Below the pieces are notes generated by a model that saw only the letters and a program-made list of their open reading frames with translations, searched no databases and was not told the origin of the DNA. This document shows positions 20,478 through 27,786 of a DNA stretch of 41,192 nt, one piece after another (positions within the stretch are counted from its first letter, which is position 1; every line of letters starts with the position of its first letter). Position numbers and translations under genes: made by a program. The stretch is from Solirubrobacterales bacterium (lineage in GTDB: Bacteria; Actinomycetota; Thermoleophilia; Solirubrobacterales; 70-9), in the NCBI GenBank assembly GCA_020438445.1, contig JAGQUO010000009.1:1-41192 (forward strand), in the 5' to 3' direction.

Positions 20478-20675
20478 TCAGCTCGGGTCCTCCTCCTCCG
20501 GGTCGTCCCAGCTGTCATAGGCGCGCTCCCAGTCCTCGCCGGGAGCGTCGCCGTCGCCCGCCGGATGCTCGCGGCCGCGCTCCCGCAGCGTCGCGACGAT
20601 CACTGCGACGAGGACGACCGCCGCCGGGACGACGTAGGGAAGCCAGTGGCCGGCATGTGCGACCGGGACGAGCAT
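20478..20675 (-). CDS. Small single-helix membrane protein
   Basis: A 65-residue protein with one membrane helix (about residues 12-30, LPYVVPAAVVLVAVIVATL) and a highly acidic cytoplasmic tail (EDWERAYDSWDDPEEEDPS). The short N-terminus includes two histidines (HAGH). It starts one base after the stop of the large membrane protein at 20677, so it is almost surely translated with it. It may be an accessory subunit of that protein. No family is recognised. Confidence 0.7.
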   Translation of the reverse strand: MLVPVAHAGHWLPYVVPAAVVLVAVIVATLRERGREHPAGDGDAPGEDWERAYDSWDDPEEEDPS

Positions 20676-20676
20676 C

Positions 20677-22149
20677 TCATCCGTTCGCCTGCGACAGCAG
20701 GTAGAGGCCGAGGATGCTGAAGAACACCATCGTCATTAGCATCCAGACCTGCGAGTAGGCGGCGGTGCGCGTGTCCTTCCACAGGGCCAGGGCCCGGTCG
20801 TGCCCGAGCGCGAGCGCGACGACGTGGCCGACGACGATCGCCCCGAACTGCACGTACCAGATGGCCGTCGCCCCGATCACCGAGTAGTCGATCGCCGAGC
20901 CCGCGGTGCCGAACCAGTCCGATCCGTCGCCGAACGGGTCGGAGAGCAGGAAGGTGAACTGCGCCTGCTCCTGGTAGACGAAGAGGCTGAAGTAGTGGGC
21001 GACCAGGTACGCGAGCGCGATCGGGATGAAGGCGTGCGCGAACCTCCTGCCGAGCTCGAGCGCCGTTCGCCGCCCGTCGACTATCCGCATCCCGTAGATG
21101 CCGCCCCAGAAGATCGCCGCGACCGCGAGCAGGGTCCCAGCGAGGAAGATCGTGTTCGTCAGCCGCAGGGCAGCCACCGGGGAGAGGCCGGCGTCGGAGA
21201 ACGTCTCGAAGAGCGAGCTGATCGGCTCCTTGAGGACACCCTCCTGGGCGCCGTCGAACGTCGTCGCGCCGATCGCGACGAGCACCAGGGCGAGCGAGCC
21301 GGCGGGGATCGCCCACTTCGTCGCCCCGGCCAGGAGCGGCCTCCGCCCGAGCCTGCCGTCACGGATCTCGAAGATCGCGAGGCTGCCGAACATCCCGAAG
21401 TACTGGGTGAAGGTCTCGCCCCGGTCGGTCCAGCGGTCGATCCCGAAGAGCCCCATGGCCATGAACGTGTAGACCGAGTAGACGATGGTCGCCGTCGCGA
21501 TCGTCTTCGGCGTGACGCCGGCGGCGGCGAACCCGGTCTGCCCCCAGACCAGCTCGAGGAAGACGAAGCCGACGAGGCCGGCCACGGCGGGCCAGCGACC
21601 GAAGCGCTCCGGGTACCGGAACGGCGCCTTCCGCTCGCGGCCGGTCAGAGCGGTGGTCGCCGCGGCGACCGTGCGCGCGATCGCGCGCCAGGGGTTGAAC
21701 GCCCGGAAGACGTTCCCGAAGAGGACGCTGAGGACGACGGTGCCGAGCCAGAACGTGACGTAGACGAAGGTGATCGCGAAGTTCCGATCGGGCGCCTCGA
21801 CGCCGTCGATCCCGGTCCAGATGACGAACGCGAGCAGAACGGCCCCGATCGCACCGGCGAGGATTTGCGCCGGCCTCGAAACCAGGGCGGTCGCGATTCC
21901 GCCGGTGAACGCCCGCCAGTCGTAGTTCTCGAGCCTCACCGTTCGCCAGCCGAGCGTGAGCCCGACGAACGAGACGATCAGCACGATCGAGCTGCCCCAC
22001 GCGAACAGCCAGTCGGGAAGCGGCAGGTCGGAGCGACCGACCAGACCGTGAGCTGATGCGGCCGCCGGCAGCAGGAGCGCGGTGACGATCGAGCTGAGCA
22101 GGACCCAGCCCGTCATAAGCGCGATCCGGCTGCCGGCGCCGCGGGTCAT
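20677..22149 (-). CDS. Polytopic membrane protein of the type often labelled fenitrothion hydrolase
   Basis: A 490-residue protein with a cleavable-looking signal (residues 1-33, ending ASA) and about eleven further hydrophobic segments. Close relatives in actinobacteria are commonly given the name fenitrothion hydrolase, but the long membrane-embedded structure and gene context argue for a transport or metal role. Cleavage after ASA would leave histidine 34 (HGLVGRSDLP) at the mature N-terminus, as in copper-binding CopC. Conserved-looking segments include NPWRAIAR, FELVWGQTG-like WGQTGFAA, and AHYFSLFVYQEQAQ. The start overlaps the upstream gene stop (ATGA). The whole operon encodes membrane or exported proteins, including a cupredoxin-like one. 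Copper transport is my inference. Confidence 0.8.
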   Translation of the reverse strand: MTRGAGSRIALMTGWVLLSSIVTALLLPAAASAHGLVGRSDLPLPDWLFAWGSSIVLIVSFVGLTLGWRTVRLENYDWRAFTGGIATALVSRPAQILAGAIGAVLLAFVIWTGIDGVEAPDRNFAITFVYVTFWLGTVVLSVLFGNVFRAFNPWRAIARTVAAATTALTGRERKAPFRYPERFGRWPAVAGLVGFVFLELVWGQTGFAAAGVTPKTIATATIVYSVYTFMAMGLFGIDRWTDRGETFTQYFGMFGSLAIFEIRDGRLGRRPLLAGATKWAIPAGSLALVLVAIGATTFDGAQEGVLKEPISSLFETFSDAGLSPVAALRLTNTIFLAGTLLAVAAIFWGGIYGMRIVDGRRTALELGRRFAHAFIPIALAYLVAHYFSLFVYQEQAQFTFLLSDPFGDGSDWFGTAGSAIDYSVIGATAIWYVQFGAIVVGHVVALALGHDRALALWKDTRTAAYSQVWMLMTMVFFSILGLYLLSQANG

Positions 22150-22613
22150 GGGTTGACCGTGAGCTCTGCGATCTGGGTGGCCGACCCCTCGAGCTCGACC
22201 TCGAAAACACCGTCGATGTCGGCCGGGAAGTCGAACTCCGCCTTCCCACCTGCCTCGACGTCTTCCATGATGTCGTAGCCGTGGACGTGGACCTCATCGG
22301 CCGTGTCCGAGTCGACGACGAACCGGACCTCGTCGCCCCTGGCGAACTCGAGGTCGGCGACGCCGCCCTCGGGCTGGCCGTCCACGATCGTGATCACCGG
22401 AACCGCCGGCCCGGAAGCGGTCGGCTTCTCGTTCTTGTCGCGCTCCTTCGCCTTGTCGGCGGTCGTCTCGTCCTGCGTGGTGGTTGCCGTCACGTCCGTG
22501 CCGGCGCTGGTGGAATCGCCGTCGTCGTCTCCACCCTTGAAGACGAAGAAGAGCACGACGACCGCTGCCAGCGTCACGAGCAGCGCAGCGATCCTGGTTC
22601 CATTCGATTGCAT
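22146..22613 (-). CDS. Membrane-anchored cupredoxin-like protein
   Basis: A 155-residue protein with one N-terminal membrane helix (about 7-25), an acidic Thr/Asp-rich linker (27-65) and a C-terminal beta-sandwich (about 70-155) with cupredoxin-like strands (ARGDEVRFVVDSD, FDFPADIDGVFEVELEG). Two histidines in DEVHVHGYD (H109, H111) and M116 could bind copper. The C-x-H/M loop of true blue copper proteins is missing, so a type 1 site is unlikely. The ATG at 22613 follows AGGAGG. The stop overlaps the start of the polytopic protein gene by 4 bases. It may hand metal to that protein. Confidence 0.8.
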   Translation of the reverse strand: MQSNGTRIAALLVTLAAVVVLFFVFKGGDDDGDSTSAGTDVTATTTQDETTADKAKERDKNEKPTASGPAVPVITIVDGQPEGGVADLEFARGDEVRFVVDSDTADEVHVHGYDIMEDVEAGGKAEFDFPADIDGVFEVELEGSATQIAELTVNP

Positions 22614-22632
22614 CCGATCCTCCTTCGAGGAG

Positions 22633-22797
22633 CTACTTCTGACCCGTCGGCACGGTCGTGGAGCCGGCGGGCTGAGAATGATCCAGCGAGGGAGCGTCGA
22701 TCGTCTGGCCTGAGCCTCCGAACACGAACAGGATGAGCGCAACGAGGCCGATCACCAGGCCAAGGACGATGCCGATCGTGCGGTCGGTCCTGCTCAC
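22633..22797 (-). CDS. 54-residue single-helix membrane protein
   Basis: Starts at a GTG (22797) with MSRTDRTIGIVLGLV, has one membrane helix (about 8-27) and a short exported tail with a histidine (APSLDHSQPAG). It is too short for a recognised family. A TAGCCT box ends 7 bases before the GTG and overlaps the stop codon of the upstream gene, so it may begin a leaderless transcript. It lies 19 bases before the cupredoxin-like gene in the same operon. Confidence 0.6.
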   Translation of the reverse strand: MSRTDRTIGIVLGLVIGLVALILFVFGGSGQTIDAPSLDHSQPAGSTTVPTGQK

Positions 22798-22804
22798 CGG
22801 GAGG

Positions 22805-22810
22805 AGGCTA
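22805..22810 (-). promoter_or_regulatory. Candidate -10 box (TAGCCT) inside the operon
   Basis: TAGCCT on the minus strand ends 7 bases before the GTG at 22797. Its first three bases are also the TAG stop of the upstream gene. Confidence 0.35.
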
Positions 22811-23167
22811 GCCGATCGCCTCCCGGGCGCACCGCCGTTGAGCGATGAGCCCGAAGCGCGGCGGAGGGCCGCGATCGGCAAGCGAACGGATCGCCCGCGA
22901 GACGGGGCGGGGATCGGCGCTCGCGGGCCGCAGCACGCCGTGGTCCGGCCGCGACGCCCGCGGGAGCTCTGAGATCCGTCGGCACGCCTCGTCGAGCAAC
23001 GCGAACCCGGGAACGATCCCGAGAACGAGCATCGGCACGACGATCGCGACCAGCGGTGCGAGGGCAACGAGGCCTCCCGCGGCGATGATCCCGACGACGA
23101 GCGGTGCCATCGCGACGATGAACGCGGCGGCGGCCCGACGTTCGAAGCGAAGCGAGTCCGTTCTCAC
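22808..23167 (-). CDS. Small two-helix membrane protein, paralogue A
   Basis: A 119-residue protein starting at a GTG (23167, MRTDSLRFERR). Two closely spaced membrane helices (about 13-32 and 34-56) are followed by a motif (PMLVLGIVPGFALLDEACRRI) and an arginine/proline-rich cytoplasmic tail. Helices and motif match the proteins at 23191-23514 and 27424-27786: a hydrophobic run, then LG, a small residue, G, and an acidic helix. So this is one member of a three-copy local family. It is the first gene of the leftward operon. The start is predicted to be leaderless, from a promoter shared with paralogue B. Confidence 0.65.
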   Translation of the reverse strand: MRTDSLRFERRAAAAFIVAMAPLVVGIIAAGGLVALAPLVAIVVPMLVLGIVPGFALLDEACRRISELPRASRPDHGVLRPASADPRPVSRAIRSLADRGPPPRFGLIAQRRCAREAIG

Positions 23168-23190
23168 CCGCTCAACGCTACAGTCCGAGC
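23168..23190. promoter_or_regulatory. Bidirectional promoter with overlapping -10 boxes
   Basis: On the plus strand TACAGT (23179-23184) ends 6 bases before the ATG at 23191. On the minus strand TAGCGT (23175-23180) ends 7 bases before the GTG at 23167. The boxes share the TA at 23179-23180. Both transcripts would be leaderless and would compete for or share one melted region, which would tie the two operons together. Confidence 0.55.
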
Positions 23191-23514
23191 ATGATCGGCG
23201 ATCCACCGCCCCGCCAACGGATGGCTGCCGCGATGCTGGTCCTCGTTTGCGCCCCCGCGGTCCTCGCCGTGACCATGTCGGGAGGCGCGGTCGCGTTGCT
23301 CCCGCTCGCGCTCCTGATCCTCCCGATCCTGGCACTCGGGCGACCGGCCGGCATCGAAGCCCTCGAGCGTGTCCTTGCCGCCGAGCGGGCGCCGTCCGGA
23401 TCCCGCAGCGTTGCCTCGGTCCGGGAACTGAGGGAATCCACTCCTCGGACCCGCAATCCCATCGCCGACGCGCTGGCCGAGCGGGCGCCGCCGACGGCGC
23501 CCGCCGCCACCTAG
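23191..23514 (+). CDS. Small two-helix membrane protein, paralogue B
   Basis: A 107-residue protein with two membrane helices (about 11-30 and 32-50). They are followed by LPILALGRPAGIEALERVLAAER, which lines up with the matching region of the proteins at 22808-23167 and 27424-27786, and by a charged tail. No named family is recognised. It is divergent from paralogue A, sharing its promoter, and precedes the gene for a histidine-rich exported protein by 33 bases. Its association with copper-type genes in all three copies suggests a role in that system. Confidence 0.65.
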   Translation: MIGDPPPRQRMAAAMLVLVCAPAVLAVTMSGGAVALLPLALLILPILALGRPAGIEALERVLAAERAPSGSRSVASVRELRESTPRTRNPIADALAERAPPTAPAAT

Positions 23515-23547
23515 ACGTACCCAGCCATCACCCGAAGGGGGTGCGCC

Positions 23548-24177
23548 GTGACACGGCCATTCCTGCTCTCGCTCGCGCTCGGGCTGCTGATCGCGGCGAC
23601 GGCATCCATCCACGCCGATGCCCATCAGGGCAACCCCAACTACAGATCGGAGATCCGGGGAATCGCCCCCGAGGTTCCCGGGCTCCGGGCCGAGGTCCTC
23701 AACTACGACTCCGACATCGTCCTGACCAACGACAGCGACCGGACCATCGAGGTCGAGGGATACGAGGGCGAGCCATATCTCCGGTTCGCACCGGACGGGA
23801 CGGTCGAGGCGAACCTCAACTCCCCGGCCTACTACCTGAACACCGACCGCTACGGAGACGTGGACGTGCCCGCGGCCGCGGACGCCGGCGCCGCCCCCGA
23901 CTGGAAGGTCGTGGCCGCCGGCGGGGAGTTCTCCTGGCACGACCACCGATCGCACTACATGAGCACCTCGACTCCGCCCCAGGTCACCGACGAGGGACGG
24001 CGGACCAAGATCTTCGACTACGAGATCCCGCTCAGGGTCGATGGCAGGCCCGCCGCCCTCGAGGGCACGCTCTACTGGGTCGGATCGCCCGGCTTTCCGC
24101 TGCTCCCGTTCGTGCTCCTGGGCCTCTTCGCCGCCGGCTCCTTGCTACTGGTCGTCGTCGTCCGGCGGAGGCGGTGA
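23548..24177 (+). CDS. Exported, membrane-anchored protein with predicted N-terminal histidine
   Basis: A 209-residue protein with a signal peptide (1-25), a globular exported part (26-180) and a C-terminal membrane helix (about 184-204) with an arginine tail. The signal ends IHADA, so cleavage would leave H26 (HQGNPNYRSE) at the mature N-terminus. A histidine cluster H131, H133, H136 (FSWHDHRSHYMS) follows later. An N-terminal histidine plus further histidines is the layout of copper histidine-brace proteins, so copper binding is plausible but unproved. I know similar actinobacterial proteins only as hypothetical. The GTG at 23548 has an AAGGGGG ribosome binding site. It diverges from the operon that encodes the second predicted N-terminal-His protein. 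Confidence 0.78.
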   Translation: MTRPFLLSLALGLLIAATASIHADAHQGNPNYRSEIRGIAPEVPGLRAEVLNYDSDIVLTNDSDRTIEVEGYEGEPYLRFAPDGTVEANLNSPAYYLNTDRYGDVDVPAAADAGAAPDWKVVAAGGEFSWHDHRSHYMSTSTPPQVTDEGRRTKIFDYEIPLRVDGRPAALEGTLYWVGSPGFPLLPFVLLGLFAAGSLLLVVVVRRRR

Positions 24178-24179
24178 GC

Positions 24180-24791
24180 TCAGACGCCGTCGAGCAGGCG
24201 CCAGTTCGCGGCGAACGCCGCCTCCGCGGCGGCGACGACGGCGTCCTCGTCGGCCGGGGTCGCGATCAGCTCCTCGAGGAGCTCGCGCCCCTCGGCTGCG
24301 TGTTCGACGTCGCGGCCCCGATGGACGGTGAAGTAGCGGGTGCCGGACTCCGACTCGACGCCGTAGTGCTCTGCGAGGCCCTCGAGCTTGGTCTTCGAGA
24401 TCGCCGGCTGGCCGCTCTCGATCGCGTAGAGGCGGGCGATGGCGCTGAGCGCGCCGTCCTTCTCGGTCCAGACCTCGACGCACTCGCTCGTCTCGGGCGT
24501 CGCCGCCGCACCGATGTCGCCGCCGACGGCATCGACGAAGCCGTCCCACATCGCGACGTGGGCATGCTCCTCCTCCGCGTGGGAGGCGAGCTCGGGGTGA
24601 TCCGGCAGCTCCCCGGCCGCCGTCGCCGAGAGCTCGGCGATCGCCGTCACGGCGTGCCGGTACTGGCCCGAATAGCGCGCCAGCTCGTCCGGGCTCAGCT
24701 CGCCGGCCGACCAGCGGACGTAGAAGGGGTGCTGGAGGACGTCGTGCCTCGCGCGTGCCTGCTCGATGCGGTCCCAGACGGTGTCGGCCAT
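24180..24791 (-). CDS. Haem-oxygenase-fold enzyme, TenA/PqqC/CADD type
   Basis: An all-helical 203-residue protein of the TENA/PqqC superfamily. E125 (LYAIESGQ) and the triad H157, D161, H164 (VHRGRDVEH) keep the same spacing as E142, H174, D178, H181, the dimetal ligands of chlamydial CADD. Other acid and histidine candidates lie in 64-78 (DHPELASHAEEEHAH). This favours a CADD-like di-iron oxygenase, the type that makes p-aminobenzoate from its own tyrosine, over a TenA thiaminase. The ATG at 24791 has GGGAGC upstream, and a TATGCT box lies at 24834-24839. The open frame extends further upstream without homology. It converges with the histidine-rich protein gene. Confidence 0.82.
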   Translation of the reverse strand: MADTVWDRIEQARARHDVLQHPFYVRWSAGELSPDELARYSGQYRHAVTAIAELSATAAGELPDHPELASHAEEEHAHVAMWDGFVDAVGGDIGAAATPETSECVEVWTEKDGALSAIARLYAIESGQPAISKTKLEGLAEHYGVESESGTRYFTVHRGRDVEHAAEGRELLEELIATPADEDAVVAAAEAAFAANWRLLDGV

Positions 24792-24885: not shown

Positions 24886-25704
24886 TTGCGCCCCGACCGC
24901 GACGACATCGCCATCCCCCCGTTCCCCCCCGGGACCACGTGGATCGGAGCCGAGGAGCCCGTCAGCGAGCGGATGACCGCCCGTTCGGCACTGCTCGTCC
25001 ACTTCTTCGAGCTCGGCGAGCTGAGCGGAATCCGCACCCTGCCGTTCGTCGCCGGGCTCGCCCGCACCTACGCGGAGAACGGCCTCTCCGTGCTCGGCGT
25101 CCACTCGCCGCGCTCCGATCTCGCGGCGAGCGACGCCGCCCTCGAAGCGGGCCTCGCCCGGCTCGACGTCCCGTTCCCGGTCGGTAACGACGCCGAGCAC
25201 AGGATCTGGCACGCATACGGCTGCCGGGGATGGCCCTCGACCTTCCTCTGGGGGCGCGGCGGGACCCTGCGCTGGGCCCACTTCGGCGAGGGCGCCTACC
25301 ACGAGACCGAAGCAGCGGTCCGCACCGAGCTCGCCGGCGGCGAGGGCCACGATCTTCCCGAGCCGGTGGTCGGGCCGCCGCCCGACGGGCGCCAGCCGCG
25401 GATCGGCAGGCCGAGCGACGAGGTCTTTCCGGGCGGCGCCCACGACGCGCCCTGGACGCCGTCGCAACCGGGCGAGCCGCTGGAGGTCGAGTATGCGGGC
25501 GCCGGGGCTTGGGCTGCTCTCGACGGAGACGGGACGGTCGATCTCAGCGTCGACGGCGAGCCGACCGGTGAGATCGTCCTCGGCGGCCCCGGGCTCTACG
25601 AGCTCAGCGGTCATCCCGTGCACGGGATGCACGAGGTGCGGCTCGACTTCGACGGTGACGTCAGGGTCTGGTCGCTGGCATTCAGCCCGGGACCCGAGGG
25701 CTGA
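24886..25704 (+). CDS. Thioredoxin-fold protein without active-site cysteines, with C-terminal beta domain
   Basis: A 272-residue protein whose first 150 residues follow the TlpA/DipZ-type thioredoxin fold: ALLVHFFELGELSGIRTLPFV (strand and active-site helix), a LSVLGVHSPR strand, and YGCRGWPSTFLWGRGG with the cis-proline loop. Where relatives have CxxC (compare the DipZ-type WTYSCVNCLRTLP) this protein has ELGELSG, so it cannot do dithiol chemistry. The remainder (about 190-272) is a beta-rich domain like the one attached to DipZ thioredoxin domains. No signal peptide is seen, so it is probably cytoplasmic. The start is uncertain: the TTG at 24886 fits the frame, but its ribosome binding site is poor. 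Confidence 0.75.
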   Translation: MRPDRDDIAIPPFPPGTTWIGAEEPVSERMTARSALLVHFFELGELSGIRTLPFVAGLARTYAENGLSVLGVHSPRSDLAASDAALEAGLARLDVPFPVGNDAEHRIWHAYGCRGWPSTFLWGRGGTLRWAHFGEGAYHETEAAVRTELAGGEGHDLPEPVVGPPPDGRQPRIGRPSDEVFPGGAHDAPWTPSQPGEPLEVEYAGAGAWAALDGDGTVDLSVDGEPTGEIVLGGPGLYELSGHPVHGMHEVRLDFDGDVRVWSLAFSPGPEG

Positions 25705-25710
25705 CGCCGC

Positions 25711-26082
25711 TCAGGGGCTGACGACCATGGTCAGGCTGTCGTCCTCATGGGCCGAGCACTCGACCTCGTAGGTTCCGGCGCGATTGAGGGGGATCGTCAG
25801 CGTCTGGCCGGGATTGACGGGGAACCCGCTGACCACCTGAAGCTCGGCGTCGTGGTTGGTGACCTCGACGGTGTCGCCGACGGTGCCCTCGATCCGCTGC
25901 GGTACGCCCGGTACGTCCTTGCCCGCGTCGACGAGCTTCGACGCGCCCGCGGGGATGTCGAAGCGGATCGTCTCCCCGCTTTCCGCGGGCTCCTGCGAGC
26001 CGCAGGCGGCCAGCACCGCCGCGACGGCCACGAGGGCCGTCGCGGCGGCGGCCGCGCTCCTACTCAGCGCGAGCCGTCGCAT
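25711..26082 (-). CDS. Cupredoxin-like lipoprotein
   Basis: A 123-residue exported protein. The lipobox LAAC (C27) is followed by a beta-sandwich. Probable blue-copper ligands are H77 (VTNHDAELQ), C109 and H112 (VECSAHEDD) and M119, giving H...C-x2-H-x6-M, close to the C-x2-H-x4-M of plastocyanin-like proteins. It may carry electrons or copper between the membrane and the PCuAC and SCO proteins encoded just upstream. Its start at 26082 lies 23 bases inside the end of the PCuAC gene, so translation is coupled. It is the last gene of the operon. Confidence 0.85.
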   Translation of the reverse strand: MRRLALSRSAAAAATALVAVAAVLAACGSQEPAESGETIRFDIPAGASKLVDAGKDVPGVPQRIEGTVGDTVEVTNHDAELQVVSGFPVNPGQTLTIPLNRAGTYEVECSAHEDDSLTMVVSP

Positions 26083-26611
26083 CCACCTCGATCTCCCCGG
26101 CCTGCTCGAAGTCGAGCGTCACCGGGATGGTGTCGCCCTCCTCGATCGGCTTCGCCAGGTCGATGAGCATGATGTGGTACCCGCCCGGCTCGAGAGCGAC
26201 GGACTGGCCGGCGGGGACGTCGATCTGATCGACCTCCTTCATTCCCATCATCGCGTCGCCCGAGTCCATCGAGTGGGTCTCGTCCATCGAGTCGGTGGAG
26301 TCCATCGAGTCGTCGGACCCCATCGAGTCGGTGGAATCCATCGATCCCTCATCGGTGGTCTCGTGCAGCTGCGCCTCGGCGGCGACCGAGCTCGGCACCG
26401 ACGCGCCGGTCAGCGTGTCGCCGTCGGGGCTCTGAATCGTCATGTAGACGGCGCCCGCGGTCTGGGTCGGCGTCGTGACGCGCGTCCAGACGTCGGTCAC
26501 GGTGGTCCCGCCCGAGGCGGAGCCGGTGCCGTCGGTGCTGTCGTCGCTGCCGCAGCCGGCGATGGCGATCGCACCCGCGACCGCGACGGACAGGAGGATT
26601 GCCTTCTTCAT
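26060..26611 (-). CDS. PCuAC copper chaperone with Met-hexad repeat loop
   Basis: Periplasmic-type copper(I) carrier that loads the CuA site of cytochrome oxidase together with SCO. The 183-residue protein is a lipoprotein (IAGC, C20). The family motif H...M...HxM is present as H83 (LHETT), a Met segment ending MMGM (121-124), and H146/M148 (GGYHIMLIDL). Between H83 and MMGM the usual short loop is expanded to five hexads of the MDSTDS type, which puts methionines at 91, 97, 103, 109, 115 and 121, exactly six apart. The ATG at 26611 has AGAGG upstream. It lies between the SCO1 and cupredoxin genes. Confidence 0.93.
   Translation of the reverse strand: MKKAILLSVAVAGAIAIAGCGSDDSTDGTGSASGGTTVTDVWTRVTTPTQTAGAVYMTIQSPDGDTLTGASVPSSVAAEAQLHETTDEGSMDSTDSMGSDDSMDSTDSMDETHSMDSGDAMMGMKEVDQIDVPAGQSVALEPGGYHIMLIDLAKPIEEGDTIPVTLDFEQAGEIEVDATARAE
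26252..26341 (-). repeat. Five 18-base tandem repeats coding Met-Asp/Ser hexads
   Basis: Five in-frame 18-base units within the PCuAC gene code MDSTDS, MGSDDS, MDSTDS, MDETHS and MDSGDA. Methionine is invariant in position 1, and acidic or serine residues fill the rest. Confidence 0.85.
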
Positions 26612-26637
26612 TCGTCTTACCTCTTTCGTTTCCGTGA

Positions 26638-27315
26638 TCAGGCCGATTCGGGCCCGTCACCGCTGAGCAGCCGCTCGAGATCCGAGCGGATGTCGTCGGA
26701 GGGGGTCCCGAACGGCCACTCGACGAGCACTCTCCCCGTGTCGTCCACGGCGTAGACCTGTGCCGTGTGGGAGACGTCGTAGTCGCCGTGGCGGTCGGGC
26801 TTCCCGATCTTGCTGGAAGCCCCGAATGCCGTCTCGGCGCGAGCGAGCTCGTCCATGTCGGTGGTTCTGAACGAGTCGAAGCCGTCTGCATCGAAGAAGT
26901 GGCCGAGATAGCCGTTGAGGACCTTCGGCGTATCGCGCTCGGGATCGACCGTGACCATTCCGACCTCGACGCGGTCGGCCTGGTCCGCCGGCATCTCCTC
27001 GAGGGCCATGTGAAGGTCCGCGAGCGTGGTCGGGCAGACGTCCGGGCACGACGTGTAGCCGAAGTAGACGAGCATGAGCCCGTCGCCCTCTCCCTCGAGC
27101 CCGGTCATCCGCCCGTCGCCGCCGGGACTCTCGTCCGGCAGCGACACGGTGCCGACCTCGGTCGGGGGTGTCCGTGTCATTCCGTTCAGCTCGGCCTGCT
27201 CGTCGCCGCCGGAGCCGCAGCCCGAGAGGGCGGCGACGCACAGCGCCGCGAGGGCGATGACGCGCACCCGGCTCGCCGGGCGCGCTCGGGACGGTGTGAC
27301 GACCCGATTCCACAT
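26638..27315 (-). CDS. SCO1/SenC copper chaperone lipoprotein
   Basis: Thioredoxin-fold copper chaperone for cytochrome c oxidase CuA assembly. From the ATG at 27315 it has 225 residues: a signal with lipobox LSGC (C33), then copper ligands C90 and C94 (GYTSCPDVCPTTL) and H183 (VSHTAQVYAVD), the full SCO set. VTVDPERDTP, a family signature, is also present. An upstream extension of the frame is arginine-rich and lacks homology, so I reject the start at 27357. It precedes the PCuAC gene by 26 bases, the classical pairing for CuA maturation. Confidence 0.95.
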   Translation of the reverse strand: MWNRVVTPSRARPASRVRVIALAALCVAALSGCGSGGDEQAELNGMTRTPPTEVGTVSLPDESPGGDGRMTGLEGEGDGLMLVYFGYTSCPDVCPTTLADLHMALEEMPADQADRVEVGMVTVDPERDTPKVLNGYLGHFFDADGFDSFRTTDMDELARAETAFGASSKIGKPDRHGDYDVSHTAQVYAVDDTGRVLVEWPFGTPSDDIRSDLERLLSGDGPESA

Positions 27316-27367
27316 CGGTTGACTCCATTCCTCGATTCGCCGTGCGGCATCGAACACCGCGACGGCG

Positions 27368-27423: not shown

Positions 27424-27786
27424 CTACGCGCCGGCGATCGCGGGCGGGCCGCGCAGCGGACGGCCGGCGGTGAGCAGGCTCAGCGCCGGTGCGTGATCGG
27501 GGGGCGTCGGGAACCGGCGGCGGAGCGGAGCGCGCCCGAAGGAGCGGCTGCGGTCCAGCCGCTCCGTGAGCGCCACCAGCGCCTCGACGCCGGCGCTCCT
27601 GCCCAGCACGAGCGCGAGGGCGACGAGCAACATCGGCAGGCCCGCGAGCGCATCGAGCGGGCCGCCGCTGAGCGCGCTGAGAAGCGACACTGCGATTCCC
27701 GTCGCGAGCAGGGGCAGCGCGGCGGTGCGCAGTCCCGGGGCGCCGGGTACGGCCGGCGATCGCGGGAATGTCTCGGGTCGGGTCAT
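27424..27786 (-). CDS. Small two-helix membrane protein, paralogue C
   Basis: A 120-residue protein with two hydrophobic stretches (about 21-40 and 46-63). They are followed by LALVLGRSAGVEALVALTERL, which matches LPILALGRPAGIEALERVLAAE of the protein at 23191-23514 and the equivalent part of 22808-23167. An arginine/proline-rich tail completes the shared layout. The proline-rich N-terminus (MTRPETFPRSPAVPGAPG) is particular to this copy. It starts 13 bases after the ispH stop and stands before SCO1. No known family or function. Confidence 0.65.
   Translation of the reverse strand: MTRPETFPRSPAVPGAPGLRTAALPLLATGIAVSLLSALSGGPLDALAGLPMLLVALALVLGRSAGVEALVALTERLDRSRSFGRAPLRRRFPTPPDHAPALSLLTAGRPLRGPPAIAGA

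What the first reader, a model, noticed from the sequence alone, without database searches (positions are those of the whole stretch)
20478..24177. Divergent envelope module with two proteins predicted to mature with an N-terminal histidine
The leftward operon encodes paralogue A, a 54-residue membrane protein, a cupredoxin-like protein, the 490-residue polytopic protein and a 65-residue helix protein. The rightward operon encodes paralogue B and a histidine-rich anchored protein. In the polytopic protein the signal ends ASA before H34; in the anchored protein it ends ADA before H26, with H131/H133/H136 later. Mature N-terminal histidines are a hallmark of copper histidine-brace proteins (CopC, LPMOs). 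I infer a copper import or delivery module. The fenitrothion hydrolase label given to relatives of the polytopic protein would then be misleading.
Basis: partly seen in the sequence, partly recalled or inferred. Interest (0 to 1): 0.65.

Follow-up and report, generated by a model that had tools for sequence, protein, structure and literature searches.

The report
Probable copper-handling membrane gene cluster
An uncultured actinobacterium carries a small gene cluster that probably captures copper at the cell surface for its respiratory enzymes; its central membrane protein belongs to a family, found in bacteria and archaea, that no reference library searched here describes.

Summary
The genes and both signal-peptide/histidine junctions are present as described. 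Comparative genomics supports copper but changes the picture. The conserved core is cupredoxin-like protein + polytopic protein + 65-residue protein: the HxH protein sits directly upstream of the polytopic gene in 80/129 loci, the AHxGHW protein follows within 150 bp in 51/133. The polytopic protein has no Pfam, NCBIfam or PDB-fold match. Its H34, H385 and H442 are invariant in 134 relatives (H450 in 133). Relatives lie beside Sco1, CtaG, CopCD-YcnI and copper membrane monooxygenase genes. It is a cysteine-free relative of membrane polyferredoxins (hhalign E 2e-21). However, over half of the relatives have only a short leader, and 18 have a stop under 16 codons before H34, so a mature N-terminal histidine is not a family feature and a brace there is unlikely. 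The anchored protein keeps its post-signal His in 21/23, sits beside CopC-CopD-YcnI in eight genomes and is fused to CopD in a ninth, but its link to the polytopic gene is occasional (12/80 loci). It is not detectably CopC. I could not verify the fenitrothion label. Best reading: a copper capture/transfer module supplying oxidase, mechanism inferred.

The parts
20478..20675 (-). 65-aa single-helix protein; N-terminal AHAGHW motif (AHxGHW family) then one TM helix and an acidic tail
   Evidence: profile built from AHxGHW seeds finds it within 150 bp downstream of the polytopic gene in 51/133 loci
20677..22149 (-). polytopic protein, 490 aa (signal-like leader 1-33, then about 10 TM helices); no cysteine in the mature chain; invariant H34, H385, H442; H450, Q467 and M474 nearly so
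   Evidence: no credible Pfam or NCBIfam match in 46 members
22048..22050 (-). codon of H34 of the polytopic protein (first residue after ASA)
20800..20802 (-). codon of H450 (TM helix 394-424 in mature numbering); H442 at 20824-20826, H385 at 20995-20997, M474 at 20728-20730
   Evidence: positions computed from the ORF; conservation
22146..22613 (-). cupredoxin-like exported or anchored protein with VHVHGYD (HxHGYD) and no type-1 copper cysteine
   Evidence: homologue directly upstream of the polytopic gene in 80/129 loci, also in a betaproteobacterium and mycobacteria
22633..22797 (-). 54-aa membrane protein
   Evidence: found only in close relatives (6 of 80 loci)
22808..23167 (-). paralogue A, two-TM protein (GTG start)
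   Evidence: relatives only in the nearest genomes
23191..23514 (+). paralogue B, two-TM protein
23548..24177 (+). anchored protein, 209 aa (GTG start): signal peptide, His26, beta-rich ectodomain, C-terminal TM anchor
   Evidence: copper neighbourhoods
23935..23955 (+). WHDHRSH motif (H131, H133, H136) of the anchored protein
   Evidence: each His kept in 18/23 relatives
25711..27357 (-). nearby copper and oxidase-assembly genes: cupredoxin-like lipoprotein 25711-26082, PCu(A)C 26060-26611, SCO1/SenC 26638-27357
   Evidence: Pfam PF04314 E 1.2e-33 and PF02630 E 7.8e-26

Best explanation
The leftward operon most likely encodes a membrane copper transfer system. The cupredoxin-like HxHGYD protein holds copper outside the membrane and passes it to the 10-TM polytopic protein. 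That protein takes it at the invariant His34 near the outer surface and moves it along a membrane-buried ladder (H385, H442 with M474, H450/Q467). The AHxGHW 65-aa protein is a small accessory subunit with its own outward-facing His pair. The cargo serves cytochrome oxidase assembly, together with Sco1, PCu(A)C and CtaG. The rightward anchored protein is a separate, optional surface copper binder, probably through a mature N-terminal His26 plus the WHDHRxH cluster; elsewhere it accompanies a CopC-CopD/YcnI importer. Shown: conservation, gene neighbourhoods, one fusion to CopD, remote homology to polyferredoxins. Inferred: copper as cargo, direction of transport, ligand roles, topology, signal cleavage.
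For: Invariant His/Met/Gln in the polytopic protein across 134 relatives; H385, H442, H450, Q467 and M474 persist in proteobacteria and haloarchaea. Upstream HxH protein in 80/129 loci and downstream AHxGHW protein in 51/133. Sco1 within 5 kb of the polytopic gene in 9 of 21 genomes with a clear Sco1 (rough chance 1e-10), and CtaG in 44/44 carriers against 89/149 overall, p 5e-13 (no phylogenetic correction). Anchored + CopCD + YcnI + polytopic genes run together in L241, with related arrangements in L202, L190 and L251. Next to or inside methane/ammonia-type copper monooxygenase clusters in two Mycobacterium plasmids, beside a heavy-metal P-type ATPase in two Haloferax, and near CopC, heme-copper oxidase subunit III and an oxidase assembly protein in M. 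gallinarum. Anchored gene beside CopC-CopD in 8 genomes and fused to CopD in a ninth; YcnI nearby in the same nine.
Against: No metal binding or transport is measured. Several distant relatives (Variovorax, Neorhizobium, Haladaptatus) have no copper gene nearby; haloarchaeal copies lack a clear H34 and some lie beside a protein annotated as an iron transporter (Pfam Fe2+ transport match just below its cut-off). The window's genome has no CopC, CopD or YcnI match. Membrane His residues could bind heme instead. The N-terminus of the polytopic model is of low confidence.
Confidence: 0.6

Rival explanations
1. The polytopic protein is an electron-transfer protein: membrane His residues bind heme, and it reduces Cu(II) or another acceptor at the outer face, replacing the iron-sulfur path of its polyferredoxin relatives (as CcoG does for copper).
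For: Near full-length homology to Fer4_5 membrane polyferredoxins; CcoG, of that general class, is a cupric reductase (PMC7558416); three His in TM helices.
Against: All cluster cysteines and the ferredoxin insert are gone; M474 and Q467, as conserved as the His, suit soft-metal binding as well; heme binding was not tested.
Confidence: 0.18
2. The module carries iron, like FtrABCD, where a cupredoxin-like FtrB works with a permease and FtrD.
For: Cupredoxin-like partner; haloarchaeal copies beside proteins annotated as iron transporters; FtrB structure and role (PMC11966278).
Against: No Ftr1 permease or FtrA was seen in the annotated loci; neighbours are Sco1, CtaG, CopCD, YcnI, CuMMO.
Confidence: 0.12
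3. One reading: both proteins are histidine-brace copper proteins that work as one module.
For: AxA-His junction in both window proteins; co-occurrence p 0.0006 and 12/80 linked loci.
Against: Signal-less relatives of the polytopic protein keep the His away from the N-terminus; 29 of 44 carrier genomes lack a detected anchored gene.
Confidence: 0.07
4. The polytopic protein is a membrane hydrolase (fenitrothion hydrolase type).
Against: Label not found in the collections searched; copper neighbourhoods.
Confidence: 0.03

Closest known systems
YcnJ/YcnI and CopC-CopD copper import (Bacillus subtilis ycn operon)
   Same: Surface Cu(II) binding domain feeding a membrane domain with an essential His, supporting cytochrome oxidase (PMC13344008); the anchored gene, and sometimes the polytopic gene, sit in such operons
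   Different: Polytopic protein has no CopD match; anchored protein has no detectable CopC or YcnI homology (hhalign probability 0.3% and 0.1%)
Anglerases Ang-1/Ang-2 (PMC12537917)
   Same: N-terminal-His beta-rich domain at the surface, tied to a membrane permease
   Different: Those are fused to HupE/UreJ-2; ours has a single anchor, and some relatives fuse to CopD or an unnamed multi-TM domain
Membrane polyferredoxins with Fer4_5 (NapH/NosR/CcoG class)
   Same: Profile match to the polytopic family, probability 99.4%, E 2e-21, 387 columns; H385 and M474 shared
   Different: CxxxCP motifs and ferredoxin insert absent; H442 and H450 present instead; genome distribution almost disjoint
FtrABCD iron transporter
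   Same: Cupredoxin-like partner protein plus membrane components (PMC11966278)
   Different: No FtrA/FtrC partners seen; different neighbours

Membership tests
Histidine-brace copper protein (anchored protein) | His immediately after the signal peptide | tested here: met
   21/23 relatives have His after an AxA-type site; cleavage itself not measured
Histidine-brace copper protein (anchored protein) | second conserved His as ligand and T-shaped geometry | tested here: inconclusive
   H131/H133/H136 each 18/23; model confident (pLDDT 94) but coordinates not available for distances
Histidine-brace copper protein (polytopic protein) | His is the mature N-terminus | tested here: not met
   As a family feature: 18 of 134 relatives have an in-frame stop fewer than 16 codons before the invariant His, and more lack a signal peptide. 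The window protein itself could still be cleaved there.
CopC (PF04234) | profile match | tested here: not met
   No Pfam match for the anchored protein; hhalign probability 0.3% against CopC from related operons
CopD (PF05425) / CtaG (PF09678) | profile match of the polytopic protein | tested here: not met
   No match in any of 46 members
Fer4_5 membrane polyferredoxin | shared membrane scaffold | tested here: met
   hhalign E 2.2e-21 over 387 columns
Fer4_5 membrane polyferredoxin | CxxxCP cluster ligands | tested here: not met
   No cysteine in the mature window protein; NPWRA and RGExF at the aligned sites
Anglerase | fusion to HupE/UreJ-2 permease | tested here: not met
   No such domain in the window protein or in two fused relatives
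Copper transporter (function) | copper binding and transport | not testable with these tools
   needs purified protein or mutants

The most novel reading that the evidence does not exclude
The polytopic family is an undescribed metal permease shared by bacteria and archaea. It arose from the membrane polyferredoxin scaffold by losing its iron-sulfur clusters and gaining a buried His/Met path, and it is loaded by a small HxHGYD cupredoxin-like protein to metallate copper oxidases and copper monooxygenases.
Probability: 0.35. Interest if true: 0.78.

Novelty: new variant of a known kind. Interest (0 to 1): 0.6.

Why it matters
How bacteria bring copper to oxidases and copper monooxygenases is only partly known; CcoA, YcnJ and CcoG are among the few described players. 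A widespread, unnamed membrane family with fixed His and Met residues, travelling with an HxH protein and sitting beside Sco1, CtaG, CopCD-YcnI and CuMMO genes, is a concrete and testable candidate. It also carries a caution for signal-peptide-His screens: an invariant His after a signal peptide need not be a histidine brace, because relatives without a signal peptide can keep it.

Tried and rejected
Pfam, NCBIfam and PDB sequence searches gave nothing for the polytopic family. PDB hits for the anchored profile are chance matches to designed trefoils and eL39. Foldseek of both models against PDB gave no E <= 0.001. Scanning genome contigs with the full alignment failed for lack of conserved stretches and was redone with 14 sequences. 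Homology of the anchored protein to CopC or YcnI was tested and rejected. Strict dependence of the polytopic gene on the anchored gene was rejected. The fenitrothion label was searched for in papers and annotated plasmids without success. The first conservation run used unoriented loci and was discarded.
Full report
What is in the window. The window is the whole of contig C11 of a 2.69 Mb, 95% complete genome in 259 contigs. Its nearest named relatives are Solirubrobacterales of class Thermoleophilia. Neither the polytopic nor the anchored protein has a Pfam or NCBIfam family. About 1.5 to 3 kb further right lie a cupredoxin-like lipoprotein, PCu(A)C and SCO1/SenC, so the setting is copper and oxidase assembly.

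The polytopic family. It is present in 49 of 149 genomes of the class, five of these being distant polyferredoxin matches, and in 62 of 296 of the phylum. It also occurs on plasmids of mycobacteria, rhodococci, rhizobia, Variovorax and haloarchaea. In 134 non-redundant relatives from actinobacteria H34 was found in all (the automatic alignment shows two gaps there), H385 and H442 are invariant, H450 and Q467 are 133/134 and M474 is 132/134. H385, H442, H450, Q467 and M474 persist in the twelve plasmid copies examined, from actinobacteria, proteobacteria and haloarchaea; H34 does not persist in all (no clear H34 in the haloarchaeal copies, and none aligned in Variovorax, whose annotated start may be late). 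AlphaFold2 on the mature chain with 46 sequences gives mean pLDDT 92.7 and pTM 0.92, with the first residues poorly placed. By helix order and charge I infer about ten TM helices with an outward N-terminus; then H385 lies in the outer half of helix 330-370, H442 and H450 in helix 394-424, M474 and Q467 in the last helix. No PDB fold matches.

Is H34 a brace? The window protein reads like a signal peptide ending ASA|H. But more than half of the 134 relatives have only a short leader before the same His (for example MWLLAH, MIPFAH, MFLYAH); 18 have a stop codon fewer than 16 codons upstream, so no signal peptide is possible there. My hydrophobicity cut-off misclassed a few true signal peptides as absent, so the split is approximate, but the 18 are firm. 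The alanine before the His is also kept in most signal-less copies. The conserved requirement is therefore the imidazole near the outer surface, not an N-terminal amine.

Partners. The HxHGYD cupredoxin-like protein lies directly upstream in 80 of 129 loci with enough sequence, and a 65-aa-type protein with AHxGHW and one TM helix lies within 150 bp downstream in 51 of 133. The upstream protein is also found in mycobacteria (LHVHS form), Pseudonocardia and Variovorax, and in most of the 20 phylum-level loci a profile hit was seen.

Copper context. Clear Sco1 lies within 5 kb of the polytopic gene in 9 of 21 genomes that have both. All 44 class genomes with a clear polytopic gene also have CtaG, against 89 of 149 overall. 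These p-values ignore shared ancestry. In L241 the order is anchored, CopC-CopD, YcnI position, polytopic on one strand; L202, L190 and L251 have related arrangements (in L241 the YcnI gene and in L190 the CopC-CopD gene were assigned by eye from sequence). On plasmids the HxH-polytopic pair sits just upstream of methane/ammonia-type copper monooxygenase genes in M. dioxanotrophicus and in the same cluster in M. chubuense NBB4, near CopC and oxidase genes in M. gallinarum, and the polytopic gene is beside a heavy-metal ATPase in two Haloferax. Other plasmid neighbourhoods are uninformative.

The anchored protein. It is found in 25 of 149 class genomes. In 23 aligned sequences the post-signal His is kept in 21 and each of H131, H133, H136 in 18; one further relative (L251) lacks the His. 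It lies beside CopC-CopD in eight genomes and is fused to CopD in G081, with YcnI nearby in these nine, and on an Iamia plasmid it lies among CopD, DUF1775, SCO and PCu(A)C genes. The ectodomain model is a confident beta-rich fold without a PDB match, and profile comparison finds no relation to CopC or YcnI. The window genome lacks CopC, CopD and YcnI hits, so here it may act alone or with the polytopic module. Link to the polytopic gene: 12 of 80 loci within about 8 kb, 15 of 25 genomes.

Origin of the polytopic family. Weak hits in another family of the class turned out to be 4Fe-4S membrane polyferredoxins (Fer4_5). Profile comparison aligns 387 columns at E 2e-21, with NPWRA and RGExF where the polyferredoxins have CxxxCP motifs and with the ferredoxin insert missing. 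The two types are almost disjoint: Fer4_5 genomes (39) and polytopic genomes (44) share one. CcoG, of the same broad class, is a cupric reductase for oxidase assembly (PMC7558416; that CcoG and Fer4_5 proteins belong together is my own knowledge). That the polytopic family lost its clusters is one reading; the direction is not shown.

Verdict. Copper handling is likely; the exact step (import, transfer or reduction) is not settled.

Noticed in passing
L259:6495-12563; L268:960-10335: HxH-polytopic gene pair beside or within methane/ammonia-type copper monooxygenase clusters on two Mycobacterium plasmids; a lead for how actinobacterial CuMMO gets copper.
   Followed up: partly
L078:6789-8357; L126:6767-8350: Fer4_5 membrane polyferredoxins related to the polytopic family; the L078 copy has an N-terminal MDHH, and both follow a small lipoprotein with a Met-rich MPGM motif.
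   Followed up: partly
window 20478-20675 and 51 related loci: AHxGHW one-helix protein family directly after the polytopic gene; no Pfam match above cut-off.
   Followed up: partly
L090, L091, L092, L094, L095: Relatives of the anchored protein that run on into an unnamed multi-TM region without Pfam match (one tested).
   Followed up: no
window 24180-24791: CADD/TENA-like (Haem_oxygenas_2) protein, close upstream of the polytopic gene in about 20 of 80 relatives; function in this setting unknown.
   Followed up: no
window 24886-25704: Thioredoxin/AhpC-like protein kept near the polytopic gene in 44 of 80 loci, usually divergent from it.
   Followed up: no
window 27424-27786: Third small protein sharing a GRxAGxEAL motif with paralogue B, next to ispH.
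   Followed up: partly
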